This document shows positions 356 through 61,218 of a stretch of 64,000 bases of DNA, piece by piece. The position numbers and the translations under genes are program-made. Source of the stretch: Niastella populi. GTDB taxonomy: Bacteria; Bacteroidota; Bacteroidia; Chitinophagales; Chitinophagaceae. The DNA is taken from contig NZ_LWBP01000089.1 in NCBI RefSeq assembly GCF_002078015.1, positions 1 through 64,000 on the forward strand. Reading direction: 5' to 3'. Position 1 is the stretch's first letter. Each line of letters begins with the position of its first letter. The notes under the pieces are model-generated. The model saw nothing but the letters and a program-made list of their open reading frames with translations. It was not told the DNA's origin and ran no database searches.

Positions 356-376
356 ATGGTCAATGGTGAATAGCTC
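356..376. repeat. Short heptad repeat (ATGGTNA units)
   Basis: Three 7-bp units follow directly after the terminator, the first two being ATGGTCA and ATGGTGA. It is the partner, in opposite orientation, of the array at 423-450. Confidence 0.6.
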
Positions 377-422
377 GCGATTTTCGGGATTTCAGAACCA
401 TGGAAACTCCGCATTGCGAAAC

Positions 423-450
423 TTCATTGACCATTGACCATTCACCATCA
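423..450. repeat. Heptad array (ACCATTN units) reaching the radical SAM stop codon
   Basis: Four 7-bp units. The last one contains the reverse-complement stop codon (448-450) of the radical SAM gene, so the array abuts and overlaps its 3' end. Read on the other strand the units match those at 356-376. Confidence 0.7.
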
Positions 451-1749
451 ATGCGCGAAATCTTCTTCGTAATTTCCCGTAATACGTTCCATCGACGGGT
501 TGAAGTAACCGAATTTCACCTGTGGAAATTCTTCATGGATCAGTTCCTGCAATTGTTTTACGCCCAGCATGTCGCCGGTTTCATAGGCGCCGATCCTGCC
601 CATATACCAGTCGGGATCGATATTGAAATTACGCCACTGGATCATGTTCAGCCCGGTATCGATGATCAGCTTCCGCAATGCCTCGTATTCTTCCTCACAG
701 TCTGTCATACCCGGAAATACAAAATAGTTGATGCTCGTCCACCCGTTAAAACTGCGCACCACTTTCAGACTTTCCACAATATCTTCAAACTGGTAGTTAT
801 TGGGGCGGTAATATGCTTCGTAAATATGTTTGCGGGCCGAGTTCATGCTCACGCGAATAGAGTTCAGTCCTGCTTCACACAAGGCTTGTACCGCGGCGGG
901 TTTTGAACCGTTGGTATTGATATTGATGCTTCCCTTACTGGTATGCCTGCGCATTTCAATGATCGACTCGCGAATGGTTTCCCACATCAGCAGCGGTTCG
1001 CCTTCGCAACCCTGGCCAAAACTCACAATGGGGTAGGGCGCGGTTTCGAGGTGCGGAACGGTAAACTCCACGATCTCTTCGGCTGTAGGTTTGAAAGTGA
1101 GGCGGTCCTGCGTTGAAACGATCTCTTCTTCCTGGGGTTGAAATGATATACAGCCGATACAATTGGCATTACAGGCCGGCGATGAAGGCACCGGGCACTC
1201 CCAGCGGCCCATGAAATAGTTGCGGGCGGCCGGACAATTATACGTGAGACAGCAATTTTCGGCGAGGTGTTTTACCAGCCGGTTATGCGGATATGCTTTC
1301 AGGTAGGTGCTTACGCCCGATTCAATTTTTTCGGTATCGAAACCAGCGCATTCCTGGCGAATGTCCTGCTCAATGCGAACTGCCGGAACATAGAACTGGT
1401 CGTTATGCCAGCCAACAGCGGTATAACAGAACAGTGGCAGGGTAGGCGCATCAGGCGCGGTTTCGTAGGCGGCCAGAAATAAACCGGTGTGTGCAGGCGG
1501 AATAAAAGCGGCCACCGCCCAGCCTTTATCGCACAGACGCATTTCACCGGTGTTTACATCGATACCGATGCCCCGGCGGCCAGGTAATTCGTACAAAGAA
1601 CCACCTTCGGGTAAAGCGATCCAATCCTCAACCGGCACTTCAAAAGCATCCCAACCGGCGCGGCCGGTGGCATACAGCGTCATATCTTCAAAAATGTTCC
1701 CTTTCCCGTCGGAATACAACAAATACGGAGAGCTCCTCAATACAGACAT
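448..1749 (-). CDS. Radical SAM protein
   Basis: 433 residues. A CxxxCxxC iron-sulfur motif (Cys193, Cys197, Cys200) would bind the [4Fe-4S] cluster that cleaves S-adenosylmethionine. GQGCEGEP at 246-252 sits where the SAM-binding glycine-rich strand is expected, and the following ~180 residues fit the partial TIM barrel. The ~190 residues before the cluster are an unusual N-terminal extension with extra cysteines (166, 167, 172, 185), which could hold a second metal site. The substrate cannot be read from sequence; this architecture occurs as an uncharacterised family in Bacteroidota and Deltaproteobacteria. An A-rich stretch just before the ATG suits Bacteroidota initiation. The gene stands alone on its strand between two heptad repeats. 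Confidence 0.85.
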   Translation of the reverse strand: MSVLRSSPYLLYSDGKGNIFEDMTLYATGRAGWDAFEVPVEDWIALPEGGSLYELPGRRGIGIDVNTGEMRLCDKGWAVAAFIPPAHTGLFLAAYETAPDAPTLPLFCYTAVGWHNDQFYVPAVRIEQDIRQECAGFDTEKIESGVSTYLKAYPHNRLVKHLAENCCLTYNCPAARNYFMGRWECPVPSSPACNANCIGCISFQPQEEEIVSTQDRLTFKPTAEEIVEFTVPHLETAPYPIVSFGQGCEGEPLLMWETIRESIIEMRRHTSKGSININTNGSKPAAVQALCEAGLNSIRVSMNSARKHIYEAYYRPNNYQFEDIVESLKVVRSFNGWTSINYFVFPGMTDCEEEYEALRKLIIDTGLNMIQWRNFNIDPDWYMGRIGAYETGDMLGVKQLQELIHEEFPQVKFGYFNPSMERITGNYEEDFAH

Positions 1750-1764
1750 CTTTACTCTTTTTTT

Positions 1765-1936
1765 GCTAAACGCTTAACGCTCAATGCAAAACGCCTATTC
1801 TGGAACAAGCGTTCAGCTTTTGGCGTCCGGTGCTAAGCCTGATTTATTTGCTAAAAGCTTAACGCCGAAGGCTTAACGTAAACTCCTTTTTGGGGTGTTA
1901 AGCGTTCAGCGTTTTGCGTTCAGCTTTAAGCTTGTT
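1765..1936. repeat. Intergenic heptad arrays (GCTTAAC / GCGTTCA vocabulary)
   Basis: There are three blocks in 7-bp phase: five units of GCTNAAC type at 1765-1799, five at 1850-1884 (GCTTAAC occurs twice), and about six of GCGTTNN type at 1895-1936. The last block runs over the stop codon (1926-1928) of the membrane protein gene. The array fills almost the whole gap between that stop and the radical SAM start. Confidence 0.7.
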
Positions 1937-5711: not shown

Positions 5712-5735
5712 TTGTTAACCCGTCAACATTTCAAC
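5712..5735. repeat. Octad repeat (NNNTNAAC units)
   Basis: Three 8-bp units ending in AAC (TTGTTAAC, CCGTCAAC and one more) lie in the 250-bp gap before the amidase. The same vocabulary recurs at 19489-19512. Confidence 0.45.
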
Positions 5736-5828: not shown

Positions 5829-8800
5829 ATGAGAAAATTCTACCTGCTCCTGCTTTGCATGCTCAGCAGCGCATCTATTTCATTTGCGCAAAATGATACC
5901 AGCATTGTAACCCATCTGAACCAGCTCATCAGTCAGGAACCGTCTATTCATTTACGGGTCGACAGTGTTATAAAACGCAACGGCGACCTGCATGTTTTCT
6001 TCAATACCGATGCCGCATTTGCACCCGGCGACATCTCCGAAACCGAATCGGAAGTGGTGACCGAGCTCCTGCTGCACCTGATCACCGATACCGACAGCCG
6101 AAACGTCTTACCGTTCGCAAAAGACAAAACAAACGGCGAATGGAGAACGCTTGACTGGTTCGTGCTTTCGGCCCCCATAGAAAAATATGAACCGGTAAAG
6201 AATAACGATCCCTATCCCGATAAGCCCGGGGCCGCCGGAACGGAAGGAGCGCGCATTTTTCCCGGCCAGGGCCAACCCGCAGGCCCAGGTGCATTGAGCG
6301 GAAAAACTGTTTGGTTAAGTGCGGGCCATGGCTGGCAGAATACCGGCACCGGGCTGGGTTTTCTTACCCAGCGGGGCAATTCAAACCAGTTGGTAGAAGA
6401 TTTCACCACCGCAGAAACGGTCGATCACTATTTGCTGAACTATCTTATCAATGCCGGGGCCAATGTATGGAGTGTACGCGAACGTGATATGAACCCGGCG
6501 GAGATCATCGTGAACAACGACGACGGCGCACCGGCCTATACTGAAACCGGTACCTGGAGCGATGGCACCATCGCCGGTTATGGCGGCACCTATCGTACCC
6601 ATGTTGCCGGCGCTGCGGAAAAAGCAAAAGCTGTTTTTAGACCTGCCGTTACCACCAGCGGGCTGTACTGGGTTTCCGTCAGGTATATCAGCGGCGTCAA
6701 TCGCGCCACAGACGTCAAATACGCCGTTACCCACGCCGGCGGCGCCACCACATTCACCGTTAACCAGGAAATACATGGCGATACCTGGGTATACCTGGGA
6801 CAATTTTATTTTTTCGCGGGCGGCAATTATACAATCACCATCAGCAACCAGTCGGCCGACAGCACCCAGGCCATTGTTGCCGATGCCATTCGCCTTGGGG
6901 GTGGTATTGGGCAAACACCCGACTGCCTTAACGGCGGCACAGCCAGCGGCAGACCGCGGTTCGAAGAATCGGCGCGGCAGTTCGCCCGCTTCCAGGGACA
7001 TCCGCCCTGCCGGGAAGATGTAACGGTTCGCCCCATATATACCGAATGGGAATTGAGCAAAGGCCTCGCCGGTGAAATAAGCAATGCCGTTTTTGTTTCC
7101 TTTCATACCAACGCCGGCGGCGGTACCGGTACCGAAAGTTACCGGTATAACGGACTGGGTTCCTCGCAACCGAACATAACGGCAGGCAGCACGCAGTTGC
7201 GCGACAGCATCCACCGCCAGTTGGTGGCCGATATTCGCGCCGGCTGGCGCAGTACCTGGACCGACAGGGGAGTTAAAACGGCTAACCTTGGCGAATTGAG
7301 GGAGTTGCGCACCATTCCCGGAACGCTGATAGAATTAGGTTTTCACGATCATACCGGCGATGCGGCCGCTATGCGGGAACCGGAATTCCGCCGCCTTGCA
7401 GCCCGCGCCATTTATAAAGGCATTCTGAAATTCTTTACGTACCGCGACAGCATTCCCGTTACCTTTTTACCCGAAGAACCGCGGCTGCTGGCTGCACGCA
7501 ATACCGGTTACGGAAAGATCCGCCTGAGCTGGGCGCCGCCGGTAAGCGGTGGCATTTATGGCGATGCCGCTACCGGTTATCGCGTATATGTAAGCGATAA
7601 CGGCCGCGGTTTTACCGATGCGGTTAATGTAACCGATACCAGCTTTCTCTTCAAAGCCAAACCCAATAAAACGTACTTCTTCAAAGTAACTGCCGTAAAT
7701 GCCGGCGGTGAATCATTTGCTTCCGGCGTAGTGGCGGCACGTACGGCCAGGCATTCAATGTCGCACAAACATAAACCGGTGAAATACCTGCTTGTCGATG
7801 GGTTCGACCGGCTCGATGCATCGGCCATGCTGTTGAAGTTTGAAAGCAGCGCCCTTGGCAATGTACGCCGCATGGTATTGAACAGCATGAACAATTACAG
7901 TTATATGGTAGAACATGGCAACGGACTTGCCGCCTGCGATGTGGCATTCGATGGGGTGCAAAATGAAGTGATCGGTTCCTGTACCATTGACCTGTCGGCA
8001 TATTTCGCCATCGACTGGTTTGCAGGTGAAGAAAGCACGGCAGGCAAATCGCTCGATTCAACCGAAAGATCACAATTGAAAAAATACCTCGATCGTGGCG
8101 GCCGCCTGCTGATCTCGGGCGCCGAAATAGGGTGGGACCTTGGCCGGGCGGCATCCGCCAATGCAGACACCGGTTTTTACAACGATTACTTAAAAGCAGT
8201 ATACGTAAGCGATGGCGCTGGTACTTATAACTTTAATGGCACTACCGGTTTTTTTAATGGAGGAACCGGCTCGTATGGCAATGGGGTGAACGGGGCGTAC
8301 AATGTAGATTTTCCCGATGTGCTCGATACCACCGGCGGTTCTGAACTGGTTTTGCATTATACTGGCGGCACAGGTGCAGGTATTGGTTACAAAGGCCGGT
8401 TCAGGGTACTGTATTTTGGTTTTCCGATTGAAGCAATAGTTGATGAAAACGTACGTAACAGTATTATTTGTCAGTCTGTTGACTATTTATCGAACCCCTA
8501 CCGGCATTGTGGTTTCGTATTACATGGCCATCATGGCCGCCACGGCAATCATTTGCAATGGACAACCGGCCCCGAAACCAATACCGCCTATTACCGGCTG
8601 GAAAAAAGCAGGGATGGAAAACATTTTGAAACGGTAAATGGCCGCATCGATCCCATGGGCTCGGCATCGGAAGGATATGAATATGAGTTTGACGACAGCG
8701 ATGATAACAGCACGGTTTATTATCGCGTGGTAACGATCGATAAGAACAATAAGCAAATAGTGTCGAACCTCGCTATTATTCAGCACGACAAACCCGCCCA

Positions 8801-9038
8801 GTTGTTTGTACTGAACAATCCGGCGCGCGGCGATATCCGGTTGAAAATAATTGGCAGCGGCGCGTTTAAATTAACGTTGATGAATGAGACCGGGCAAACG
8901 GTTTACCAAACCACTGTAAATGCATTCAACAGCCGCCTGGTGACGTTGCCCGCCGCCCGGCTGGCAAAAGGAATGTACTGGCTATCTGCCGCTGTTGATG
9001 GCCGGAAGGTGGAAACGGTTAAAATTTTGATGCAATAG
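5829..9038 (+). CDS. Secreted N-acetylmuramoyl-L-alanine amidase with golvesin-like insert, FN3 domain and T9SS sorting tail
   Basis: 1069 residues with a signal peptide (1-20). The Amidase_3 zinc site is complete: His167 in SAGHG, Glu190, His426 in SFHTNAG, and the catalytic Glu502 in IELGFHD. Between Glu190 and His426 lies an inserted beta domain (about 240-357, ending in VADAIRLGGG) that looks like the golvesin C-terminal-like carbohydrate-binding fold. A fibronectin type III domain (about 550-640) follows, then a ~330-residue beta-rich region I cannot name. The last ~80 residues form a T9SS type A sorting domain. The protein should cleave the amide bond between MurNAc and the stem peptide outside the cell, perhaps on other bacteria. 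It is a single-gene unit. Confidence 0.88.
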   Translation: MRKFYLLLLCMLSSASISFAQNDTSIVTHLNQLISQEPSIHLRVDSVIKRNGDLHVFFNTDAAFAPGDISETESEVVTELLLHLITDTDSRNVLPFAKDKTNGEWRTLDWFVLSAPIEKYEPVKNNDPYPDKPGAAGTEGARIFPGQGQPAGPGALSGKTVWLSAGHGWQNTGTGLGFLTQRGNSNQLVEDFTTAETVDHYLLNYLINAGANVWSVRERDMNPAEIIVNNDDGAPAYTETGTWSDGTIAGYGGTYRTHVAGAAEKAKAVFRPAVTTSGLYWVSVRYISGVNRATDVKYAVTHAGGATTFTVNQEIHGDTWVYLGQFYFFAGGNYTITISNQSADSTQAIVADAIRLGGGIGQTPDCLNGGTASGRPRFEESARQFARFQGHPPCREDVTVRPIYTEWELSKGLAGEISNAVFVSFHTNAGGGTGTESYRYNGLGSSQPNITAGSTQLRDSIHRQLVADIRAGWRSTWTDRGVKTANLGELRELRTIPGTLIELGFHDHTGDAAAMREPEFRRLAARAIYKGILKFFTYRDSIPVTFLPEEPRLLAARNTGYGKIRLSWAPPVSGGIYGDAATGYRVYVSDNGRGFTDAVNVTDTSFLFKAKPNKTYFFKVTAVNAGGESFASGVVAARTARHSMSHKHKPVKYLLVDGFDRLDASAMLLKFESSALGNVRRMVLNSMNNYSYMVEHGNGLAACDVAFDGVQNEVIGSCTIDLSAYFAIDWFAGEESTAGKSLDSTERSQLKKYLDRGGRLLISGAEIGWDLGRAASANADTGFYNDYLKAVYVSDGAGTYNFNGTTGFFNGGTGSYGNGVNGAYNVDFPDVLDTTGGSELVLHYTGGTGAGIGYKGRFRVLYFGFPIEAIVDENVRNSIICQSVDYLSNPYRHCGFVLHGHHGRHGNHLQWTTGPETNTAYYRLEKSRDGKHFETVNGRIDPMGSASEGYEYEFDDSDDNSTVYYRVVTIDKNNKQIVSNLAIIQHDKPAQLFVLNNPARGDIRLKIIGSGAFKLTLMNETGQTVYQTTVNAFNSRLVTLPAARLAKGMYWLSAAVDGRKVETVKILMQ

Positions 9039-9044: not shown

Positions 9045-9079
9045 GGCTGGTGGTTAGTGCGAAATGGCTGGTGGGAATA
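9045..9079. repeat. Heptad array (GGCTGGT units)
   Basis: Five units in 7-bp phase, GGCTGGT occurring twice, start six bases after the amidase stop. A related block with GTGGCT vocabulary is at 57272-57299. Confidence 0.6.
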
Positions 9080-9817: not shown

Positions 9818-9888
9818 AAGGAAATACAGCTGCAGGCTGTAAGCTACATGCGAATACAGGCGAAAGTCCGAAGCCTAAAGTCGAAAGG

Positions 9889-9992
9889 GAATACTGCTTA
9901 AAAGCGAGGCGTTGAGGCATAAAGGCAACGAGGCAACGAGGAATACAGCTTAAAAGCAAGGCGTTGAGGCATAAAGGCAACGAGGCAACGAG
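9889..9992. repeat. Two tandem 52-bp repeats in an intergenic repeat field
   Basis: Units 9889-9940 and 9941-9992 differ at two positions (GAATACTGC vs GAATACAGC; AAGCGAGG vs AAGCAAGG), and a partial third follows. Each contains the smaller echo GAGGCAAC twice. The whole gap 9818-10083 is repeat-like and shares words such as AATACAGCTG and GCGAATACAG with 16782-17026. Confidence 0.8.
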
Positions 9993-10062
9993 GAATACAG
10001 CATACCGGCTAAAACTGAAAGCGAGACTTGAAAATAGTCGCGAGACCCGAATTAAATGAACC

Positions 10063-10083
10063 ATAAACAATAAACAATAAACC
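10063..10083. repeat. Heptad repeat (ATAAACA) directly before a GTG start
   Basis: Three 7-bp units (ATAAACA twice, then ATAAACC) end at the base before the GTG of the oxidoreductase. This is one of the few arrays next to a start codon rather than a stop; being A-rich, it may also serve as the ribosome-binding leader. Confidence 0.6.
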
Positions 10084-11472
10084 GTGAATAGAAGAAGTGT
10101 TTTAAAACAACTCAGTCTAAGCGTAGGAGCTACGGTATTAGGCTCAAAAACAATGGCCCGGCTTACCAATGACACGATCGAGTATGAAATTCCGGAAAAC
10201 CCGTTGTACAAAAAGCTCGACAAACCCGTTACCGCCATTACCCTTGGCGCAGGTAACCGCGGTAATGTGTACGGCAATTTCGCCCTCAAATTTCCCAACC
10301 TGTTGAAGATCGTTGGCGTTGCCGAACCCGTTGCCCTTCGTAACGAACGCTATGCCACCAAACACCAGGTCGACGACAAAAACCGTTTCGATACCTGGGA
10401 GCGAGTTTTTGAACGCCCCAAATTCGCAGACGCCATCATCATCACCACGCCCGATGCATTGCATTATGCGCCCTGTATGAAAGCGCTGCAAATGGGTTAC
10501 GATATTTTGCTTGAAAAACCCATTGCCCCCACTGAAAAAGAATGCCGCGATATTCTGGCCCTCGCCAAAAAGACGGGCCGCATTGTAGCCGTATGCCACG
10601 TATTGCGTTATGCACCCTATTTTGTAAAAATGAAAGAACTGCTGGCAAAGAACACCATCGGCAATATTATCAGCATCCAACACCTGGAGCCCATAGAACA
10701 CCTGCACATGGCGCATTCTTACGTTCGCGGCAACTGGCATAACTCAAAAAAGACCACACCTATCATCCTGGCCAAATCGTGCCATGATCTCGATATCATA
10801 AAATGGATCATCAACCAACCGGCGAAACAAATTTCAGCCATGGGCGATCTGAAATGGTTTAGAAAAGAAAATGCACCGGAAGGCAGCACCGCACGTTGTA
10901 CCGATGGCTGCAAAGTAGAACGCAGTTGTCCATACTCGGCCATCAATGCTTATTACGACAAACGGCTTCGCCTGTCGGTGTTCGATCTGCCTGAAGACAA
11001 GGCCAAACACCCTGAGGCCATCATGGAGAAATTAAAGACAACCGATTACGGCCGTTGCGTGTACCGGATGGACAATGACCAGCCCGATCATTACATTACC
11101 AACATCCGGTTTGGTGATAATATCACGGCCAGTTTTTCAATGGAAGCATTCACCTCCTATGCCGGCCGCCGTACCCGCGTAATGGGTTCGCACGGCGATA
11201 TGGTAGGGGATATGACCGAACTGGTTGTCACCGATTTTCTTACCGAAAAACAAACCAAACTGGTTCCCAAGGCCGAAGATGTGGAAGGATACCGCAACAG
11301 CGGCCACGGAGGGGGCGACTGGTTGCTGGCGCATGATTTTGTGCAGGCCGTAGCTCAGCAAAATCCCAAACTGCTCACCTCAACTATCGATGAATCTATT
11401 GAAAGCCATGTAATGGGCTTCAAGGCTGAAGAAAGCCGGAAAAGCAATAAGGTGGTGTCAATAGTTATGTAG
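10084..11472 (+). CDS. Gfo/Idh/MocA family oxidoreductase with Tat-like leader
   Basis: 462 residues from a GTG start; an in-frame ATG is next found only at codon 24, after the leader. The N-terminus MNRRSVLKQLSLSVGA resembles the twin-arginine-type leaders seen on exported members of this family. The Rossmann motif GAGNRG is at 56-61 and the catalytic-loop EKP at 144-146. KSCHDLD (232-238) lies where the conserved His/Asp pair that handles the sugar hydroxyl is expected. Three cysteines (272, 276, 282) in the beta-sheet domain are a family-specific feature. It probably oxidises or hydrolyses a sugar or sugar derivative with NAD(P). It is convergent to the CE15-GH2 operon, which suggests a shared carbohydrate role. 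Confidence 0.85.
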   Translation: MNRRSVLKQLSLSVGATVLGSKTMARLTNDTIEYEIPENPLYKKLDKPVTAITLGAGNRGNVYGNFALKFPNLLKIVGVAEPVALRNERYATKHQVDDKNRFDTWERVFERPKFADAIIITTPDALHYAPCMKALQMGYDILLEKPIAPTEKECRDILALAKKTGRIVAVCHVLRYAPYFVKMKELLAKNTIGNIISIQHLEPIEHLHMAHSYVRGNWHNSKKTTPIILAKSCHDLDIIKWIINQPAKQISAMGDLKWFRKENAPEGSTARCTDGCKVERSCPYSAINAYYDKRLRLSVFDLPEDKAKHPEAIMEKLKTTDYGRCVYRMDNDQPDHYITNIRFGDNITASFSMEAFTSYAGRRTRVMGSHGDMVGDMTELVVTDFLTEKQTKLVPKAEDVEGYRNSGHGGGDWLLAHDFVQAVAQQNPKLLTSTIDESIESHVMGFKAEESRKSNKVVSIVM

Positions 11473-11473
11473 T

Positions 11474-11515
11474 TGCTGAAGGCTTAACGCTGAACGCTAA
11501 AGGCTGAACGCTTGC
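11474..11515. repeat. Heptad array (GGCTTAA/CGCTGAA units) after the oxidoreductase stop
   Basis: Six consecutive 7-bp units without a phase slip begin one base after the TAG stop at 11470-11472. Neighbouring units differ at one to three positions. Confidence 0.75.
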
Positions 11516-15967: not shown

Positions 15968-16036
15968 GCGTTCTGCATTCAGCGTTTTGCGTTAAGCATT
16001 CTGCGTTAAGCGTAAGCGTTCTGCGTTCTGCGTAAT
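15968..16036. repeat. Heptad array (GCGTTCT/GCGTTAA units) between divergent genes
   Basis: Ten consecutive units, nine of 7 bp and one of 6 bp, beginning GCGTTCT GCATTCA. This is the cleanest example in the window. It lies between the CE15 start and the promoter of DUF2071, so arrays are not restricted to 3' ends. Confidence 0.8.
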
Positions 16037-16781: not shown

Positions 16782-17036
16782 AAGCGGGAATATAGCTGTA
16801 AGCCGTAAGCTGTAAGCCGCAAGCAAATACAGGAATACAACTGAAGACAAAAGCCAAAAGCGAATACAGCTGCAAGCTGCAAGCCGTAAGCTGTAAGCAA
16901 ATACAGGAATACAACTGAAGACAAAAGCCCAAAGCGAATACAGAATACAGCCGTAAGCCGTAAGCCGCAAGCAAAGCGAATACCGAACTGACCAACTGAA
17001 TAACTGAACAACTGAATAACTATGAACTATGAACTA
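16782..17036. repeat. Complex repeat field: heptads of GCCGTAA type inside ~74-bp direct repeats
   Basis: Three heptad blocks (16795-16822, 16869-16896, 16950-16970) use the words GCTGTAA, GCCGTAA and GCTGCAA. The connecting text between the first two blocks (AAATACAGGAATACAACTG and following bases) occurs at 16825 and again at 16899, an offset of 74 bp. The right end changes to AACTGAAT octads and then AACTATG heptads, which cover the stop codon (17027-17029) of the next gene. Confidence 0.8.
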
Positions 17037-20650: not shown

Positions 20651-20684
20651 AACGTGCCACACTTTCAAGGTGTGGCACGTTTCA
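20651..20684. terminator. Bidirectional terminator between glk and a convergent small gene
   Basis: AACGTGCCACACTTT pairs with AAGGTGTGGCACGTT with flanking A and T runs on either side. The core GTGCCACAC...GTGTGGCAC is nearly the same as in the terminator at 43681-43713. Confidence 0.85.
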
Positions 20685-20691
20685 TATAAAT

Positions 20692-21295: not shown

Positions 21296-23131
21296 ATGGC
21301 TCGAGGCAACAGACAGGATAACGGTACACGTAAACCGGATATGCCTAAAGCAAAACTGACTAAGGAAAATCTGAAAGAAGCCTTCCTTATTTTCAATTAT
21401 CTTAAACCCTTTCGCCGGACGTTTGTTACCGGTTTACTTTTTATAGCGCTTTCAAGTGGCACTACCATGGCGTTTCCATATTTTTTGAAGAAGCTGATCG
21501 ATAGTGCGCACTCGCTTAGTTTAGGCAAAGACGCCGTTGCACCCGGCACCATTGCATTATGGATGCTGGGAATTTTAACATTGCAGATGATCTTTTCATT
21601 TATGCGGGTTTACCTGTTCACCTATGTAGGCGAGCATGCGCTGTCGGATATGCGAAAAGACGTATACCGAAAAATGATCATGATGCCCATGAATTTCTTT
21701 GCACAAAGAAGGGTAGGGGAACTCTCGAGCCGGATCAGCGCCGATCTTTCACAGATCCAGGACGCCGTAACCGGCATGCTGGCAGAAATTTTGCGTGGAT
21801 TGCTTACCCTTGTCATTGGCATGGTGCTGATATTTGTATTATCACCTGCGCTGGCTACTGTTATGTTATCGGTGGTGCCGGTAATAGTTATCATTGGTGT
21901 TGTGTTTGGCAAGCGTATAAGAAAACTCTCACGCAATACCCAGGATCAGCTGGCCGATTCCAATACCATTGTACAGGAAACCCTGCAGGGCATCAGTAAC
22001 GTAAAATCGTTTACCAATGAGTGGTATGAGATCGGCAGGTATACGCGCAGCCTGCAGCAGGTGGTAAAACTGGCGGTAAGCAATGGCCGGTTCAGGGGCA
22101 TGTTCGTGTCGTTTATATTATTAAGCATCTTCGGAACTATAATACTGGTTGTATGGTATGGCACTACCCTTGTACAGGCCGGCACGCTTTCCTTTGGCGG
22201 ACTGACCGCGTTTGTCGTGTATACCGCTTTTGTTGGCGGCAGCATGGCGGGATTTGCCGATCTGTTCAGCCAGTTTCAAAAAACACTGGGCGCTACGCAA
22301 CGCGTACGGGAAATTCTGCGCGATGAAACGGAACCCGTAGCTGTTACCGATGAACCGGTACAGGAAAAAAATAAACTACAAGGCGCTGTTAGTTTCGAAC
22401 ACGTGGCCTTCAGCTATCCATCCCGTAAGGAGTTGCATATACTAAAAGACGTAAGCATTAATGCCGCGCCGGGCGAACAAATTGCCATCGTAGGCCCCAG
22501 CGGCGCCGGCAAATCAACCATAGCCGCCCTGTTATTGCAGTTTTATCATCCCGATGAAGGCAGGTTATTATTCGATGGAAAACCGGCCAACAGCATTCCG
22601 CTTTCACAGCTTCGCAAACAAATGGCCCTGGTACCGCAGGATGTGTTGTTGTTTGGCGGAACCATAAATGAAAATATTGCCTATGGTAAACACGATGCCA
22701 CCCAGGCGGAAATTGAAGAAGCGGCCCGCAAAGCCAATGCGCATGATTTTATCACCGGCTTTCCTGAAGGGTACGAAACAGTGGTGGGGGAGCGGGGTGT
22801 TAAATTATCGGGCGGTCAACGCCAGCGCATAGCCATTGCACGCGCCATATTGAAAGACCCGGTTATACTGGTGCTCGATGAAGCTACCAGTTCGCTCGAC
22901 TCGGCTTCAGAATCGATCGTTCAGGAGGCGCTCGACAACCTGATGAAGAACCGTACCTCCTTTGTGATCGCCCACCGGTTATCGACCATTCGCAATGCCG
23001 ATAAAATTATCGTTCTCGACAAAGGTCATGTAGTTGAAAGCGGAACCCACCAGGAATTACTGGGTATGGATGATGGGTTATATAAGAGTTTAAATAAACT
23101 GCAGTTGGAATTTAAATCTGAAGACATATAA
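21296..23131 (+). CDS. ABC transporter, fused permease and ATPase (MsbA/multidrug type)
   Basis: 611 residues. Six transmembrane helices lie between about 40 and 335 and the nucleotide-binding domain between 365 and 605. Walker A is GPSGAGKST (400-408), the signature LSGGQ (504-508), Walker B ILVLDE (524-529) and the switch histidine His560. As a half-transporter it should act as a homodimer, exporting lipid A, lipids or drugs across the inner membrane; the exact cargo cannot be decided from sequence. A 20-residue basic N-terminal extension precedes the first coupling helix. It is a single gene; a heptad array begins eight bases after the stop. Confidence 0.88.
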   Translation: MARGNRQDNGTRKPDMPKAKLTKENLKEAFLIFNYLKPFRRTFVTGLLFIALSSGTTMAFPYFLKKLIDSAHSLSLGKDAVAPGTIALWMLGILTLQMIFSFMRVYLFTYVGEHALSDMRKDVYRKMIMMPMNFFAQRRVGELSSRISADLSQIQDAVTGMLAEILRGLLTLVIGMVLIFVLSPALATVMLSVVPVIVIIGVVFGKRIRKLSRNTQDQLADSNTIVQETLQGISNVKSFTNEWYEIGRYTRSLQQVVKLAVSNGRFRGMFVSFILLSIFGTIILVVWYGTTLVQAGTLSFGGLTAFVVYTAFVGGSMAGFADLFSQFQKTLGATQRVREILRDETEPVAVTDEPVQEKNKLQGAVSFEHVAFSYPSRKELHILKDVSINAAPGEQIAIVGPSGAGKSTIAALLLQFYHPDEGRLLFDGKPANSIPLSQLRKQMALVPQDVLLFGGTINENIAYGKHDATQAEIEEAARKANAHDFITGFPEGYETVVGERGVKLSGGQRQRIAIARAILKDPVILVLDEATSSLDSASESIVQEALDNLMKNRTSFVIAHRLSTIRNADKIIVLDKGHVVESGTHQELLGMDDGLYKSLNKLQLEFKSEDI

Positions 23132-23138
23132 GAGCCAG

Positions 23139-23173
23139 TTTGTTGTTTGTTGTTTGTGGTTTGTGGTTTGTGG
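23139..23173. repeat. Heptad array (TTTGTTG/TTTGTGG)
   Basis: Five uninterrupted 7-bp units, two of TTTGTTG then three of TTTGTGG, start eight bases after the ABC transporter stop. It is the least degenerate array here and may be the youngest. Confidence 0.85.
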
Positions 23174-23235
23174 TTCTTCAATTCGGAACTCGCTACCAAT
23201 GGCAGGCATCATGAAATAGAAAGTACTGTATTCGC

Positions 23236-26257: not shown

Positions 26258-26338
26258 GGCAACAGGTTCCAGGTTACAGGGCGTACATGATATCGATTGT
26301 ATTTACCTGTATCCTGAAACCTGGTTACCAGTTTTCAG
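26258..26338. repeat. Paired heptad arrays in inverted orientation between convergent genes
   Basis: The left block (26258-26285) uses GGCAACA, GGTTCCA, GGTTACA. The right block (26304-26338) is largely its reverse complement (TACCTGT, AACCTGG, TTACCAG). Each begins or ends within a few bases of a stop codon (26250-26252; 26335-26337). The two could pair into a long imperfect hairpin and act as a two-way terminator. Confidence 0.75.
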
Positions 26339-27698: not shown

Positions 27699-28280
27699 AT
27701 GATAAAAAGTGAATTGATCAACGAACTTATACGAACACGCCGGAGTGTGTTTACCCCACAATTTGAGCCGGGAAAAGTTATTCCCGATGAAATTATCTGG
27801 CAGGCGCTGGAGAATGCCAACTGGGCGCCCAACCATAAATTCACGGAACCCTGGCGGTTTACGGTTTTTACGGGGAACGGCTTGCAAAAACTGGCCGAAC
27901 AACAGGCTGAGATCTATAAAAAATACGCCGGCGCCAAATTCAAACAAAACAAATATGAACAGATGCTGGTAACGCCGCAGCAGTGTTCGCATGTTATTGC
28001 CATTGGCTGTAAGCGGCATGCCGACCAGTTGCCTGAGATCGAAGAAATTGCGGCGGTGGCCTGTGCGGTGCAGAATATTTACTTAACGGTTTCGGCATAT
28101 GACGGCCTCGGCGGTTACTGGAGCACCGGCGGAATTACGTTTATTGAAGAAGCCAAAGCGTTATTTGATCTGGGCGCCGATGACAAACTGATGGGTTTCT
28201 TTTACCTGGGTTATGTTAAGGTTCCATCTGTTTCGGGCAAACGAAAACCGGTGCAGGAGAAAGTGACATGGGTAATTTGA
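27699..28280 (+). CDS. Nitroreductase family protein (FMN-dependent)
   Basis: 193 residues, one nitroreductase domain of the short YdjA-like type. RTRRSV at 12-17 carries the conserved arginines that contact the FMN phosphate, NWAPNH (41-46) is the usual start of the second flavin loop, and the C-terminal GYVKVP fits the family. Such enzymes reduce nitroaromatics, quinones or flavins with NAD(P)H as cytoplasmic dimers. The physiological substrate is unknown. An octad repeat starts at the base after its stop codon. Confidence 0.85.
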   Translation: MIKSELINELIRTRRSVFTPQFEPGKVIPDEIIWQALENANWAPNHKFTEPWRFTVFTGNGLQKLAEQQAEIYKKYAGAKFKQNKYEQMLVTPQQCSHVIAIGCKRHADQLPEIEEIAAVACAVQNIYLTVSAYDGLGGYWSTGGITFIEEAKALFDLGADDKLMGFFYLGYVKVPSVSGKRKPVQEKVTWVI

Positions 28281-28304
28281 TAATGGGATAATGGGATAAT
28301 GAAA
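28281..28304. repeat. Octad repeat (TAATGGGA) directly after a stop codon
   Basis: Three 8-bp units (TAATGGGA twice, then TAATGAAA) begin at the base after the nitroreductase TGA. Confidence 0.7.
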
Positions 28305-43566: not shown

Positions 43567-43675
43567 AGGTACTTTCCAGTGCTCATTTGGTTAACCCGAT
43601 CTAATTAAAACAGAATTAAAATACATATTATGCAACCTTCCCATACATGAATGCGTCGCCCGTTGGATATACGGC

Positions 43676-43713
43676 AAAAAAGAAGTGCCACACCTTGTGG
43701 GTGTGGCACTTCT
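43676..43713 (-). terminator. Terminator of the gyrA-TPR transcript
   Basis: A 14-bp stem (AGAAGTGCCACACC with GGTGTGGCACTTCT), 20 bp after the TPR stop, with T residues following on the minus strand. Confidence 0.88.
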
Positions 43714-47874: not shown

Positions 47875-47963
47875 CCCTATTTAAGCGTGAAAACCCGGTA
47901 ATTGAAGGGGTTTTTTAGGCTTAAATTTTATCAACAAATGTTAAGAAATACAGCAGAAGATCA

Positions 47964-47984
47964 CCGGTTACCGGTTACCGGATA
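47964..47984. repeat. Heptad repeat (CCGGTTA)
   Basis: CCGGTTA twice and CCGGATA once, in phase, in the gap between gyrA and the histidine kinase. Further degenerate text with CAGGTTAC words runs to about 48075. Confidence 0.6.
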
Positions 47985-48092
47985 CGGGGAAAACCAGTTG
48001 CAGGTTACAGGGCATACCTACATGACCCGCGCAACCAGGAATGGTACCTGGCAACAGGTAACCAATAGCCGTTAAGAAGAAAGAGAAATCGT

Positions 48093-53363: not shown

Positions 53364-53459
53364 GCAATAAGCAAAAGACAAATTTGAACTCGCAAATAAT
53401 AGCGACATCCGACAACCGGCAACGTTTGCAATTGCCAGTTATCCATTGCCAATTGACTA
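53361..53459. repeat. Heptad arrays at both ends of a convergent gap
   Basis: Left block 53361-53381: TAGGCAA TAAGCAA and a third unit, the first containing the stop codon of the upstream gene. Right block 53404-53459: eight units of GACAACC, then TTGCCAA type, the last one reaching the DUF1501 stop (53457-53459). Confidence 0.75.
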
Positions 53460-56363: not shown

Positions 56364-56452
56364 TGCATGAATTTAAGAGAAGCCCGGTTACACAATGCAA
56401 ATTGCCTACCACTCCTTACAAAAATATGTGAACGGAATGTTATGTGCAAAAT

Positions 56453-56487
56453 AGTTCTGAGTTCTACGTTGTTAGTTCTTAGTTTTG
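56453..56487. repeat. Heptad array (AGTTCTN units)
   Basis: Five units in 7-bp phase (AGTTCTG, AGTTCTA and variants), 66 bp before the sirtuin stop codon on the other strand. Confidence 0.65.
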
Positions 56488-56552
56488 GCAGGATTTGCGT
56501 CAGAAATAATTTTTACCTGTATTTCATTTGCGAAATGACCTCCGCCGCACCA

Positions 56553-57271: not shown

Positions 57272-57299
57272 AGTGGTTAGTAGCGAGTGGCTGGCAGGG
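57272..57299. repeat. Heptad array (AGTGGTT/AGTGGCT units)
   Basis: Four 7-bp units upstream of the sirtuin start; vocabulary close to 9045-9079. Confidence 0.6.
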
Positions 57300-57413
57300 C
57301 TTTTATTGTGTATTGGATTTCCTACCTGCTCATAAAAAGGTGAGCCTTTCAGAGAAAGACCCACCGGATAAAAAATGAACCCTATTTAGAACACTACTGT
57401 TATGAATGGTATT

Positions 57414-57441
57414 CCCACTTACCACTTATCACCAGCTATTT
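57414..57441. repeat. Heptad array (ACCACTT units) over a stop codon
   Basis: Four 7-bp units; the last contains the stop codon (57436-57438, minus strand) of the VWA-less lipoprotein gene. Confidence 0.6.
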
Positions 57442-58119
57442 CTTTACGGTTAATGAACCTGCTGCACGTACCAGGCTGATAAACTCCTGCCGATAGCCGT
57501 TTGTATCGGCTCCTTTGGACCCTTTGGCCAAATCAAGCACCTGTTGAAAGGAAGCATTCTGTTTAAATTCAGAATCGCGCAGCAACATACCGAAGGAAGC
57601 TACTGCAGCCGAGAACCGGAAATTATCGGAAGCGGCGGCTAAAGCCAGACGCGAGTCGGTAACCGGATGAATACGCACCGCGCCTGCATGTGGAATAATG
57701 CCGTTATTTATATAGCGGCGAACATTGCTATAGGCCGCTTCGTCTACGTCGATGGAAAAGGTGGAAAGGGGATGCTGCGTAGCAGCAAGGAACCTGTTCT
57801 CGACAATATGATCGTAATCTTCGGTTTTAAAATCCTTTATTTTTTCTTCCAGAGTGTAAGGCTTAGGAGCCTCTTCATGCATTTCTTCGCAGTCTTTTAC
57901 CATCTTTGGAACAGTGTATTCATTCGTCCATACTGTAGGCGCAGGTGATGGAAATACCAACGAGTTATCAATTGTAAGATCTTCATTTTTGTATTGGGCT
58001 GCTGCGCCGCCACTGTCAGCAGCTTGTTTTTCGGTTGTACCGCCATTCTTTCCGGAATCGTTACAGGCAATAAAGATCCATAGCAGCAATGCTGCAAGCA
58101 GTTTACATAAAAATTTCAT
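57436..58119 (-). CDS. Lipoprotein of the YfbK/VWA family with the VWA domain deleted in frame
   Basis: 227 residues. A lipobox (FIAC, Cys19) anchors it. Residues 95-150 (ENRFLAATQHPLSTFSIDVDEAAYSNVRRYINNG) match the N-terminal domain that precedes the von Willebrand factor A domain in YfbK-like proteins. Residues ~160-222 (FRFSAAVASFGMLLRDSEF, then GYRQEFISLV) match their C-terminal DUF3520 end. At about 57640-57672 the text passes directly from AVRI to HPVTDSRLAL, so the whole VWA domain (~300 residues) is missing while the frame is kept. It may be a non-functional deletion product or a stable stump. Downstream sits the sirtuin gene. Confidence 0.75.
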   Translation of the reverse strand: MKFLCKLLAALLLWIFIACNDSGKNGGTTEKQAADSGGAAAQYKNEDLTIDNSLVFPSPAPTVWTNEYTVPKMVKDCEEMHEEAPKPYTLEEKIKDFKTEDYDHIVENRFLAATQHPLSTFSIDVDEAAYSNVRRYINNGIIPHAGAVRIHPVTDSRLALAAASDNFRFSAAVASFGMLLRDSEFKQNASFQQVLDLAKGSKGADTNGYRQEFISLVRAAGSLTVKK

Positions 58120-58458
58120 GACTGTGTTTTTAGGTGTGCGTAGTATTTAGATGCAGGCAGAGAAAAATTACATAAATAATTGTCGGGTCCTTTAGATTTG
58201 GATCTAAGATTTGTTACGGGTACAAATTACAAATGTCCGGTTTGCAGAATGATCATGGCCGGCGGGAAGTACATTTAAAAACGAAAAAAGGTGCCACAGT
58301 TTGAACCGTAACACCGTTAAATTTATAGAAGAAAGCCGCAGCGGAAAATAGTAAGGCTGAGCAGTGTTATTTGCCGTCCCCGGTAAAGCCGGGATCTTCC
58401 GTTTGCCCTTTCACGTTTGCCGTTTCACGATTGCCGATTGCCGTTTAACGACTGCCGG
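58120..58458. other. Intergenic region holding the lipoprotein promoter and a heptad array
   Basis: The left half holds a TAGATTTGGATCTA near-palindrome (about 58191-58206) that could be a regulatory site. A CCCCGGTAAAGCCGGG hairpin lies near 58378-58393. The right end is the array 58401-58463. No gene seen. Confidence 0.5.
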
Positions 58459-58463
58459 CTACA
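58401..58463. repeat. Heptad array (GTTTGCC/GATTGCC units) up to the EVE stop codon
   Basis: Eight to nine units in unbroken 7-bp phase (GTTTGCC and GATTGCC each twice). The EVE gene stop codon (58459-58461) lies in the last unit. Confidence 0.8.
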
Positions 58464-59893: not shown

Positions 59894-60550
59894 ATGAAAA
59901 AGAAGAAAATGCTGCTCACTGTTCTGGCGGCGGCAGGTATTACAACGGCTGGTCTGGTATATGCTGCAGACCATATTGACGCTCCCGCTGTCACCAACCG
60001 GTCAACCGACATTACCGATGTGTATGTATTCAGGGGACAGGATGTAAACAACCTGGTATTTGTTGCCAATACGCAGGGATTGCTTGCCCCTTCAGCTACC
60101 GGGGCAGCCCAATGGGATGCCAACACCCTTATTGAATTCAACATCGACAACAACGAAGACAATATAGAAGATCTGGTGATACAGGGTATTTACAACAATG
60201 GCATGATGAGAGTTTATGGCCCGGTAAAACCATCAGAAACGGGCAACCGCAGTCAGCTTGAAGGCAAGGTTACCGCCGAAGTGTCCGTTACACCTTATGG
60301 CTCTGCTGCCAATATAGGCACCGGTAGCGGAATGAAAGTATTTGCCGGCCCGCGCGACGATCCATTCTTTTTTGACCTGAACCAGTATAAAAAGATCATT
60401 GCAGGAACCGCTACCAGTTTCAACAACCCGGGTACCGATGCATTCGCCGGCACCAATGTGTTAAGTTTCGTTGTAGAAGTTCCGAAAACGATGCTTAATG
60501 CAAAGAATGGCAAGCTGAACGTTTGGGTGGAAACAAAGAAAAAAGTCTAG
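59894..60550 (+). CDS. DUF4331 family exported protein
   Basis: 218 residues with a signal peptide (1-24) ending before ADHIDAPAV, the mature start typical of DUF4331. The domain continues with ITDVYVFRGQDVNNLVF, a Pro/Asp-rich middle and PRDDPFFFDL near residue 155. The family is periplasmic, of unknown function, and often forms pairs. Here the second half of the usual family length sits in the next gene, so the two products may act together. First gene of the cluster DUF4331-DUF4331-TPR-TonB receptor. Confidence 0.82.
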   Translation: MKKKKMLLTVLAAAGITTAGLVYAADHIDAPAVTNRSTDITDVYVFRGQDVNNLVFVANTQGLLAPSATGAAQWDANTLIEFNIDNNEDNIEDLVIQGIYNNGMMRVYGPVKPSETGNRSQLEGKVTAEVSVTPYGSAANIGTGSGMKVFAGPRDDPFFFDLNQYKKIIAGTATSFNNPGTDAFAGTNVLSFVVEVPKTMLNAKNGKLNVWVETKKKV

Positions 60551-60586
60551 TTATTCAGTTATTCAGTTGTTCAGTTCAGTTATGAG
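60551..60586. repeat. Octad repeat (TTATTCAG units) directly after a stop codon
   Basis: Three 8-bp units, a 5-bp unit, and another partial one, starting at the base after the TAG of the first DUF4331 gene, inside the operon. Confidence 0.75.
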
Positions 60587-60620
60587 TAACTCATTCTTAC
60601 AAAAAATCAACAAAAAATTT

Positions 60621-61136
60621 ATGAAACTATATAGCTATTTATTGATCGCGGCCGGTTTACTAACTTTCTCCGCCTGCAACAAAGACGATGATAAAGAAAA
60701 AACTTATTATCAAACGCAGGACCAGATGGCGCGTCCCGCAATCAATACGGTATTCGTATCTGCCGCCGACAAGGATATGTTCAATACCACGACGCCTTCC
60801 ATGATGAATGGGGCATTTGCCAGCAAATTCAAATCAACACTGTTGGCGCTGAACCCCGGTTATACCACCAACCTGCTGGGCTTAAACGCCGATCAGTTCA
60901 CCAATGTGCTGGTAACCGATGTACTGAATGCATCCACCACCGCGCCCACTACGTTTTACGATGGCACCAATGTACTTACGGGCCGCGCACTCGCTGATGA
61001 CGTAATTGACGTTGAGCTTACGCTGATCTTTGGCGGACCAACCGGCGCCTCCAACCCCGGTTTAACCAGCGATAAGGTAAGTGCAAATGACAAAGCGTTT
61101 CTGAGTTCATTCCCTTACCTGGCAACCCCACATTAG
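60621..61136 (+). CDS. DUF4331-like lipoprotein
   Basis: 171 residues from the ATG at 60621 (the earlier start at 60567 lies in the repeat). A lipobox (FSAC) follows a short hydrophobic signal. The rest, from MARPAINTVFVSAADKDMFN to GLTSDKV, matches the C-terminal part of DUF4331 proteins. Together with the preceding gene it looks like a two-gene version of one DUF4331 protein, or a pair of tandem paralogues that have diverged. It is membrane anchored, unlike its neighbour. Confidence 0.78.
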   Translation: MKLYSYLLIAAGLLTFSACNKDDDKEKTYYQTQDQMARPAINTVFVSAADKDMFNTTTPSMMNGAFASKFKSTLLALNPGYTTNLLGLNADQFTNVLVTDVLNASTTAPTTFYDGTNVLTGRALADDVIDVELTLIFGGPTGASNPGLTSDKVSANDKAFLSSFPYLATPH

Positions 61137-61148
61137 CATTACAGGAAC

Positions 61149-61218
61149 ATGAAGTAAGAAGTTCGAGACCGGCAATATCCTGGGTTTTCTTACTCTGACT
61201 TCTTACTTCATACTTCCT
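61149..61218. repeat. Long inverted repeat between two genes of the operon
   Basis: A perfect 14-bp inverted repeat (ATGAAGTAAGAAGT at 61149-61162 and its complement at 61198-61211) extends imperfectly to about 22 bp on either side of a 35-base loop. Its units also read as heptads (ACTTCTT, ACTTCAT, ACTTCCT). It sits in the gap between the second DUF4331 gene and the TPR lipoprotein and could regulate read-through. Confidence 0.8.

What the first reader, a model, noticed from the sequence alone, without database searches (positions are those of the whole stretch)
356..61218. Intergenic DNA written in 7-bp (sometimes 8-bp) phase, with a different vocabulary at each locus
At least fifteen intergenic stretches consist of degenerate units of exactly 7 bp. 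Examples are 1765-1936, 9045-9079, 11474-11515, 15968-16036, 16795-17036, 23139-23173, 53404-53459, 56453-56487, 57414-57441 and 58401-58463. A few have 8-bp units (5712-5735, 28281-28304, 60551-60586). The word differs between loci (TTTGTGG, GCGTTCT, GTTTGCC, AGTTCTN) but the period is constant. Heptanucleotide STRR repeats of heterocystous cyanobacteria are the nearest known analogue, but those share a fixed word; here only the period is shared. This points to a copying mechanism that steps by about 7 bp, or to a structural requirement for the phase, rather than one mobile sequence.
Basis: partly seen in the sequence, partly recalled or inferred. Interest (0 to 1): 0.85.

Follow-up and report, generated by a model that had tools for sequence, protein, structure and literature searches.

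The report
Polar seven-letter repeats between genes
Many gaps between genes in this bacterium and its relatives hold short 7-8-letter DNA words repeated in tandem; the words change from place to place and species to species but keep the same length and the same direction, which hints at a DNA-copying or break-repair process that has not been identified.

Summary
All 13 named intervals carry the claimed period. In 864 kb of this genome, intergenic DNA has 86 lag-7 and 43 lag-8 runs against 0.4 and 0.6 in dinucleotide shuffles; lags 5, 6, 10, 12 have 1-2. Coding DNA has no lag-7 peak. All seven congeners tested show lag 7.

'Only the period is shared' is half right: words recur, and two more rules exist. 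(1) Polarity: of 171 spacers with at least two arrays, 112 have a C-poor array before a G-poor one, 3 the reverse; it holds for unrelated neighbouring words (38:3) and away from genes (12:1). (2) Rewriting: 178 of 410 orthologous species-spacers are filled, and co-filled pairs share vocabulary in 26% (chance 9%).

No common mobile core was found, and the transposase and reverse-transcriptase families searched do not track arrays. I favour repeats added at 3' ends in intergenic breaks and then joined (inferred, 0.35); slippage with foldback copying is close behind. Prior art is near: one-word heptamers of Xanthomonas and Nostoc have the same polarity (PMC4692102).

The parts
425..448 (-). right arm CATTGAC (7 bp, G-poor on +) ending at the stop of the minus-strand radical SAM gene; weak left arm around 354-371; together a hairpin
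   Evidence: run score 14.5; RNA fold of 345-450 z -6.90; Pfam Radical_SAM
1765..1787 (.). GCTNAAC array (7 bp), left arm; the spacer 1750-1925 seems to hold two left/right series
   Evidence: lag-7 identity 0.47 over 1765-1936; series read by eye
1897..1933 (.). GCGTTNN array (7 bp), right arm, overlapping the end of the minus gene 1926-2672
   Evidence: run score 12.5
5712..5735 (-). 8-bp RTCAACNN-type units
   Evidence: lag-8 identity 0.62, 0 of 400 shuffles
9045..9079 (+). weak GTGG-type 7-bp units just after the stop of 5829-9038(+)
   Evidence: lag-7 identity 0.43, P=0.040: weakest of the 13
9906..9993 (+). two AGGCAACR arrays (8 bp, C-poor) inside a 52-bp tandem duplication 9888-10001
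10056..10082 (-). ATAAACN array (7 bp, G-poor) 1 bp before the start at 10084
   Evidence: run score 15.0
11475..11512 (+). GCTNAAS array (7 bp) 2 bp after the stop of 10084-11472(+)
   Evidence: run score 13.5
15968..16036 (.). GCGTTNN array (7 bp)
   Evidence: lag-7 identity 0.65; TRF
16794..17021 (.). mosaic of AGCYNNA heptads, AATACAG connectors and AACTGAAT octads filling the convergent spacer 16782-17026
   Evidence: spacer 20 bp in G006 and -8 bp in G003
23138..23175 (+). GTTTGTK array (7 bp, C-poor) 6 bp after the stop of the ABC-transporter gene 21296-23131(+)
   Evidence: run score 28.5; Pfam
26263..26280 (+). GTTNCAG left arm of a convergent-spacer hairpin 26253-26334
   Evidence: RNA fold z -4.44; other words, a plain terminator or overlap in congeners
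28273..28301 (+). GATAATGG array (8 bp, C-poor) overlapping the stop of 27699-28280(+)
   Evidence: run score 16.0
47963..47988 (+).
   Evidence: run score 14.0
53364..53456 (.). block with weak arms in a convergent spacer; RGCAATA-like left, CAATTGC-like right
   Evidence: lag-7 identity 0.55 over 53404-53459; six congeners have the two genes overlapping by 8-11 bp here; RNA fold only z -1.02
56453..56484 (+). AGTTCTN array (7 bp) in the spacer 56364-56552
   Evidence: run score 10.0
57412..57432 (-). CACTTAY right arm (7 bp, G-poor), 3 bp from the end of the minus gene 57436-58119; left arm around 57272-57298 is conserved in G003
58414..58446 (.). CGTTTGCC/CGATTGCC-type heptads
   Evidence: run score 11.0
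60549..60576 (+). AGTTATTC array (8 bp) at the stop of 59894-60550(+); orthologous spacers keep AGTT but differ in word and period
   Evidence: run score 17.5
61194..61216 (-). ACTTCTT right arm (7 bp, G-poor) pairing with AAGTAAGAAGT at about 61151-61163
   Evidence: run score 11.0; RNA fold z -5.19

Best explanation
Each block is a patch of extra DNA between two genes, made of degenerate 7-8-bp tandem words, with a built-in polarity: on both strands the C-poor words run 5' to 3' towards the middle of the block. SHOWN: period, polarity, preference for stop codons and convergent spacers, presence/absence at orthologous spacers, replacement of vocabulary in place, no common core. INFERRED: blocks are written at 3' ends. 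When the chromosome breaks or a fork stalls in a spacer, each 3' end facing the gap is extended by a polymerase that re-anneals about every 7-8 nt on a short C-rich template (the end itself, another array, or an RNA), and the ends are then joined. Because each end gets the C-poor strand, the product reads C-poor, middle, G-poor, often with the same words but unrelated unit order on the two sides, like two telomeres fused head to head. Later breaks add nested or replacement vocabularies; duplication in 14-bp steps and mutation reshape the arms; blocks survive where insertions are tolerated, mainly past stop codons. No enzyme is identified.
For: Polarity between arrays with unrelated words: C-poor then G-poor 38, reverse 3 (GG 19, CC 13); whole spacers 112 vs 3, two of the three containing both orders; 171 spacers with two or more arrays. 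Inverted same-period pairs: left arm C-poor 103, G-poor 7, tie 5. The rule holds for neighbouring arrays both >=60 bp from ORFs, 12:1. Array-free spacers lack it: left G/C 0.96-1.17, right 0.86-1.05, against 1.53-2.15 and 0.41-0.72 in arrays. Arms share vocabulary but not unit order: 6 of 98 pairs at P<=0.05, as expected of two independent additions from one template. Units of one GCNTTNN locus are identical in 10.1% of pairs, 4.9% between loci (regex-selected units). Adjacent identical units are not in excess, against single-unit slippage. Middles are only slightly more native than chance: longest shared string with unfilled orthologous spacers 7.0 vs 6.7. An apparently nested block: outer GGCAGTA, inner GGTTAAA (G009).
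Against: No enzyme or RNA template found; RVT_1 and Y1_Tnp presence does not follow arrays. Neighbouring heptad units are more alike letter by letter than distant ones (0.802 falling to 0.702; permuted about 0.75; 30 arrays), and identical units at distance 2 are in excess, so tandem duplication certainly acts. Arrays share longer strings with unfilled orthologous spacers than with others (>=8 nt in 16.4% vs 5.3% of 383 comparisons), which fits local seeding or undetected old arrays. Lone arrays 30 bp or more from genes do not follow the rule (15 of 41), only those nearer than 30 bp do (28 of 34; spacers >=200 bp). Proximal units better conserved than distal ones only as a trend (22 vs 12, P=0.12). 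In G018, another genus, polarity is weak (14 of 22).
Confidence: 0.35

Rival explanations
1. Ordinary replication slippage plus foldback copying. Local words expand by slippage; 7-8 nt is favoured because it is about the duplex length held by the polymerase (the idea that the papers read attribute to Mrazek and co-workers; original not seen). Inverted arms arise when the nascent strand folds back and copies itself. No special enzyme.
For: Letter similarity decays with unit distance and distance-2 identity is in excess in heptads; some arrays consist of nearly perfect copies, e.g. GATTTTGA in G006 and GGAACCT in G009; seed excess; heptanucleotides are the commonest 5-11-nt class in most genomes (PMC4679880 introduction).
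Against: Does not predict polarity between unrelated words (38:3). Adjacent identical units are not in excess, and unit order is not shared between arms. Many loci and species share the same degenerate word, which independent seeding does not explain.
Confidence: 0.33
2. Selection for transcript-end hairpins. The blocks work as alternative, often bidirectional 3' ends or terminators; slippage only supplies raw material, and C-poor trailers and G-poor leaders are favoured in mRNA.
For: Arrays lie near stop codons (38.7% within 15 bp vs 17.9% expected, n=406) and not near starts (16.8 vs 15.4%, n=310); density 2.0 per kb in convergent vs 0.7 per kb in divergent spacers. Intrinsic terminators in 23 of 159 filled vs 41 of 121 unfilled spacers, OR 0.33, P 1.7e-4. 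Filled tandem spacers fold better: median z -2.4 vs -1.37 (++) and -2.84 vs -1.2 (--).
Against: Stratified by spacer the exclusion is weak (Mantel-Haenszel OR 0.47, z -1.3, 13 informative spacers) and reversed in -- spacers (6 of 49 filled, 3 of 34 unfilled). Filled convergent spacers do not fold better (-3.5 vs -4.05). Intrinsic terminators have the opposite arm bias (C-rich first 105, G-rich first 54, tie 24) and 46 of 230 array pair ends have a T-rich tail. Neighbouring arrays away from genes obey the rule too.
Confidence: 0.17
3. Families of small mobile hairpins (MITE- or REP/RAYT-like), moved by a transposase in trans, with degenerating arms.
For: Words recur at many loci; one family (GTTTRTN) shares a middle in some loci and species, in either orientation; empty sites in congeners; all ten genus members have a Y1_Tnp match.
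Against: 35 of 443 own spacers share a core once arrays are masked. G018 has arrays but only a stop-containing or short Y1 match; G013 has two Y1 matches and no arrays in 80 kb. The Y1 protein read scores 24.2 bits against a cut-off of 80 for the REP-associated model. Arm vocabularies differ even at orthologous sites. Target duplications were not tested.
Confidence: 0.08
4. A protein that polymerises on DNA or RNA reads the 7-8-bp phase, and selection keeps the phase but not the word.
For: Constant phase with variable words; column variation within units is uneven (variance/mean 1.65 vs 0.75 for uniform scatter, 65 arrays). Similar proposals are in print for Bacillus repeats (PMC8161180), and CspB binding to heptamer repeats is cited in PMC4679880.
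Against: 41 of 45 ever-filled orthologous spacers are empty in some species. Polarity towards the middle is not predicted.
Confidence: 0.07

Closest known systems
G-rich heptameric repeats GGGAATC (Xanthomonas) and GGGGA(T/C)T (Nostoc); PMC4692102, passages and sections 13 and 16 read
   Same: Intergenic heptads, rare between divergent genes, close to ORF ends, with the same polarity: downstream of a stop on the coding strand, upstream of a start on the non-coding strand.
   Different: One G-rich word per genome with quadruplex potential; here there are many words, most without runs of G, 7- and 8-bp units, paired arms, and replacement of words between species.
Constant-size, variable-sequence tandem repeats of Bacillus (52 and 20-21 nt); PMC8161180, abstract and section 14 read
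   Same: The repeat length is kept while the sequence is not; several families per genome.
   Different: Much longer units; polarity and inverted arms are not in the parts read.
TAACTGA heptamer repeats of Beggiatoaceae, cyanobacteria and some Bacteroidetes; PMC4679880, abstract, passages, sections 3 and 12 read
   Same: Intergenic heptads; some Bacteroidetes spacers hold further heptamers and lack them in close relatives; AACTGAAT-type octads occur here.
   Different: One fixed word, mostly just upstream of starts in BOGUAY; related heptamers rarely repeated there.
STRR heptamers of heterocystous cyanobacteria (recalled)
   Same: Seven-bp intergenic tandem units.
   Different: Fixed words; no polarity known to me.
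Foldback elements of eukaryotes and head-to-head interstitial telomeric repeats (recalled; PMC6410037 seen only in a search listing)
   Same: Inverted arms built of short tandem subrepeats; telomere fusions read G-strand then C-strand.
   Different: No transposase, telomerase or conserved word shown here.
BrickBuilt MITE with minisatellite in Porphyromonas gingivalis; PMC4596501, abstract and outline only
   Same: Bacteroidetes, intergenic, tandem units with small inverted-repeat ends.
   Different: A 23-nt repeat unit with leader and tail subunits.

Membership tests
Heptanucleotide long simple sequence repeats | tandem units of 7 nt beyond chance, mostly intergenic | tested here: met
   86 lag-7 runs vs 0.4 in shuffles; 8- and 9-bp units also occur
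Heptanucleotide long simple sequence repeats | growth by single-unit slippage (neighbouring units identical more often than distant ones) | tested here: inconclusive
   identical units: distance 1 0.170 vs 0.198 permuted, distance 2 0.258 vs 0.194; letter similarity does decay
STRR / TAACTGA-type fixed-word repeats | one or a few fixed words per genome | tested here: not met
   111 consensus forms among 138 intergenic arrays of G000 (not clustered)
Xanthomonas/Nostoc G-rich polar heptamers | G-rich strand runs out of the nearest ORF end | tested here: met
   after stops read C-poor 124 vs G-poor 26 (9 ties); towards starts read G-poor 36 vs 14 (2 ties)
Xanthomonas/Nostoc G-rich polar heptamers | runs of G able to form quadruplexes | not tested
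   arm composition A 0.285 C 0.106 G 0.264 T 0.344; the words read have no runs of four G
MITE | conserved ends and body in many copies | tested here: not met
   35 of 443 spacers share a core with arrays masked; one GTTTRTN group is an exception
MITE | target-site duplication | not tested
   intergenic divergence between the species held is too large to read target ends
REP/RAYT system | a REP-associated Y1 transposase accompanies the repeats | tested here: not met
   the protein read misses both NCBIfam cut-offs; presence does not follow arrays
Intrinsic terminator | G+C-rich hairpin followed by a T tract | tested here: not met
   T-rich tail at 46 of 230 pair ends; opposite arm bias
Telomere-like end addition | C-poor strand 5' to 3' towards the end; head-to-head after joining | tested here: met
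   architecture only
Telomere-like end addition | a templated terminal polymerase | tested here: inconclusive
   RVT_1 matches exist but do not follow arrays; the genus-wide one read is a retron type XIII RT

The most novel reading that the evidence does not exclude
Bacteria of this genus heal intergenic double-strand breaks by adding short C-poor repeats, 7-8 nt per cycle, to both 3' ends before joining them. Each block is then the trace of a repair event, a bacterial counterpart of fused de novo telomeres, and the polar heptamers of Xanthomonas and Nostoc are products of the same process.
Probability: 0.18. Interest if true: 0.95.

Novelty: new variant of a known kind. Interest (0 to 1): 0.68.

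Why it matters
Heptanucleotide repeats are reported as the commonest 5-11-nt class in most bacterial genomes (PMC4679880), without a settled reason. Here many unrelated words in one genome share unit length and strand polarity and are rewritten at orthologous sites. That takes the word out of the explanation and leaves the process. The order rule between unrelated words is a constraint any mechanism must meet, and close strains or a break-repair assay could test it directly. It also means such spacers should be used with care for phylogeny and for promoter or terminator annotation.

Tried and rejected
Rejected or weakened. Common mobile core. Y1 transposase and reverse transcriptase as drivers: G015 has an RVT_1 match of similar length and no lag-7 run in 100 kb; G018 has arrays but only a stop-containing or short Y1 match. 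Stop codons in three frames as the reason for a period not divisible by three: 104 of 346 arrays on the C-poor strand (30.1%) against 31.2% column-permuted. Exact copying between arms. Arrays as evolved intrinsic terminators. Gene-proximal units older: trend only. Window scans: Rfam 0 matches at gathering threshold, ARAGORN 0 genes. Paper searches: 'Niastella' with 'intergenic repeats' gave 0 papers; only open-licence papers are held.

Limits. ORFs are greedy longest-ORF calls (60, 80 or 100 aa minimum by script). Run thresholds differ between tests (8.5, 9, 10). Runs in which one base exceeds 65-70% were dropped, not. C-poor/G-poor calls leave out ties, or differences below 2. Binomial P values treat arrays as independent, which orthologous spacers are not. 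Shuffle control for filling: one shuffle per spacer. Own-genome counts use 864 kb of 8.6 Mb. Orthologue counts use G000 with 7 (region 1) or 8 (region 2) congeners; G008 was not fetched and G001 only for region 2. The printed spacer list was cut, so I read part of it. GCNTTNN and GTTTRTN unit counts are regex-selected. The genus name Niastella and the match of G005's 9,033,684 bp to N. koreensis are recalled, not verified.

Full report
1. Setting. The window is part of contig C89 of an 8.61-Mb draft genome, G000. Nine congeners G001-G009 are held; median protein identity of orthologues in the two regions compared is 81-89%. One congener, G005, is a single contig of 9,033,684 bp; I recall that as Niastella koreensis but did not verify it. 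The own sample is 600 kb of C1, 200 kb of C187 and the window, 864 kb in all; further 460 kb of G005, 260 kb each of G003 and G009, 60 kb each of G006, G007 and G004, 40 kb of G002, and a second orthologous region around a metK-like gene in nine species including G001 (C1:346585-347838, name from its sequence, not from a family search).

2. The observation. All 13 quoted intervals carry the period. In 477 own intergenic segments there are 86 lag-7 runs (shuffled 0.4), 43 lag-8 (0.6), 9 lag-9 (0.2), 4 lag-11 (0.3), and 1-2 each for lags 4-6, 10 and 12. Coding DNA is flat at lag 7 (0.2485). All seven congeners tested have the lag-7 excess; lag 8 is weak in G004 (1 run) and absent in G002. Words shift between species: GTTTRTN gives 217 matches in G000 and 273 in G003 but 0, 1 and 2 in G001, G005 and G009, while G009 has the highest lag-7 identity of the syntenic stretches, 0.338. 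Outside the genus that word occurs in 2 of 49 genomes. The trait itself is patchy there: 23 of 80 named loci, G018 yes, G037 2 runs, G015 no lag-7 run, G013 none.

3. Words. Words recur between loci: GCNTTNN, GTTTRTN, GGTSAAT, AGCYNNA, GAATNTY, AGTTCTN, and 8-bp AGGCAACN, RGTTRACN, ATGTGMTA, GATTTNGR. Within a unit some columns are fixed and others not (241 columns with one state, 157 two, 62 three, 8 four). In GCNTTNN arrays two units of one locus are identical in 10.1% of pairs, units of different loci in 4.9%. Heptad arrays lack identical neighbours (0.170 vs 0.198) but have an excess at distance 2 (0.258 vs 0.194); octad arrays show neither. Against full independence, neighbouring heptads are more alike letter by letter than distant ones.

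4. Anatomy. Many blocks have a left arm, a middle and a right arm whose words are the reverse complement of those on the left: 115 same-period pairs, loop median 49 bp. The left arm is C-poor in 103, G-poor in 7, tied in 5. The arms share words but not unit order (6 of 98 informative pairs at P<=0.05). The order also holds where neighbouring arrays have unrelated words (C-poor then G-poor 38, reverse 3; same type 19 and 13), and over whole spacers (112 vs 3 of 171; two of the three hold both orders). It holds for neighbours both at least 60 bp from ORFs (12:1; same type 7 and 4). So neither pairing nor gene-end composition explains it alone. Array-free spacers do not show it; the non-array parts of array spacers do, weakly (left G/C 1.16-1.37, right 0.82-0.96). 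Lone arrays follow it only within 30 bp of a gene end (28 of 34) and not farther away (15 of 41). Outside the genus it is weaker: 37 of 50 in the named loci, 14 of 22 in G018.

5. Position. Array edges cluster near stop codons (38.7% within 15 bp vs 17.9% by random placement) and not near starts (16.8 vs 15.4%). There are 92 arrays in 45.9 kb of convergent and 44 in 63.1 kb of divergent spacers. Read out of the gene, arrays touching a stop are C-poor in 124, G-poor in 26, tied in 9; arrays touching a start read G-poor towards the gene in 36, C-poor in 14, tied in 2.

6. Evolution. Of 410 species-spacers in 58 orthologous spacers, 178 are filled; one shuffle of each gives 0, and periods 5/6, 9, 10/11 and 12/13 give 3, 10, 9 and 5. 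Forty-one of 45 ever-filled spacers are empty in at least one species, and filling is clustered by spacer (dispersion 3.5). Co-filled species pairs share vocabulary in 26% of 386 pairs, against 9% between different spacers. Examples: the convergent spacer C1:356166-356272 carries GTTTATR (G000), GTTTGTN (G003, G004), GTTCCNA-type (G005), GTTNAAA (G009), GTTGCAG-like words (G007), GTTATTCA of 8 bp (G002), and no array in G001 and G006. The spacer at window 60550 keeps the letters AGTT while word and period change. At window 53364-53456 six congeners have the two genes overlapping by 8-11 bp. By eye, the middle of the first window block is inverted in G006 relative to G000. Middles are only slightly more native than chance. 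Arrays share longer strings with unfilled orthologous spacers than with other spacers, as local seeding or undetected old arrays would give.

7. Function. Filled spacers hold an intrinsic terminator less often (23 of 159 vs 41 of 121, P 1.7e-4), but stratified by spacer the effect is weak (OR 0.47, z -1.3). Filled tandem spacers fold better than unfilled ones; convergent and divergent ones do not. Of four window blocks folded, three have z below -4 and one -1.0. T-rich tails follow 46 of 230 pair ends, and terminators of array-free spacers have the opposite arm bias (105 vs 54, 24 ties).

8. Drivers looked for. Y1_Tnp (PF01797) matches 32 of 39 genomes and RVT_1 (PF00078) 21 of 39, both including all ten genus members (G008 only weakly for RVT_1). 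The nine near-complete members each have an RVT_1 match in an open frame of 507-529 aa; the own copy is a type XIII retron RT beside its SWIM partner and a WGR/HEAT protein. The Y1 protein read (G005) lies between aro-type genes named from sequence, not searched, and misses the IS200 (53.8 vs 55) and REP-associated (24.2 vs 80) cut-offs. Neither family follows arrays.

9. Interpretation. On both strands the C-poor repeats run towards the middle. Extending the two 3' ends that face a gap, then joining them, gives that without requiring the sides to match in order or even in word. I rank this first (0.35); enzyme and template are unknown. Slippage with foldback copying (0.33) accounts for duplication and decay within arrays but not for order between unrelated words. 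Selection for transcript ends (0.17), mobile families (0.08) and a phase-reading protein (0.07) are less likely.

10. Relation to print. Heptanucleotide dominance and multi-heptamer spacers in other Bacteroidetes are in PMC4679880 (sections 3 and 12 read); constant-size, variable-sequence repeats in Bacillus in PMC8161180 (abstract and section 14). The polarity is published for one word type each in Xanthomonas and Nostoc and discussed there as a placement prone to allow gene regulation, without a role found (PMC4692102, sections 13 and 16). The searches listed no paper whose title or abstract start reports many words in one genome sharing the polarity, or orthologous spacers rewritten word by word.

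Noticed in passing
window 9888-10001: A 52-bp tandem duplication (2.2 copies, 96% matches) containing the octad words and a GGAATACAG connector.
   Followed up: no
G000:C253, locus L226:1896-9105: WGR/HEAT, SWIM and RT genes in a row: a type XIII retron by PADLOC models (RT 623.6 bits, SWIM 789.5 bits). G005 has three genes of the same sizes in a row (L228:3959-10938), and the nine near-complete genus members have an RVT_1 open frame of similar length.
   Followed up: partly
L227:9941-10369 (G005); G000:C145:137808-138143: An IS200-like Y1 gene, mostly one clear match per genus member, between aro-type genes in G005 and at the matching place in G000.
   Followed up: partly
G000 spacers, e.g. 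window 20654-20689 and 43675-43713: A dispersed GTGCCACAC...GTGTGGCAC palindrome followed by pyrimidine-rich DNA, found in eight spacers of one cluster, probably a terminator family.
   Followed up: no
own intergenic DNA beside arrays: AATACAG/CTGTATTC and GCGAGC/CTCGCGA are enriched in array-bearing spacers outside the arrays and seem to join vocabularies.
   Followed up: partly
L109, L116, L127: A Chitinophagaceae MAG has GCGTTNN, another GGTGAAT, and Pedobacter chitinilyticus 8-bp AACCAATG arrays; the first two are words of this genome.
   Followed up: no
G018 (L234-L237): In this other genus the nearly balanced word AACTGAAT/ATTCAGTT lies in the opposite orientation to that in the window's genome, an exception to fixed word orientation.
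   Followed up: no
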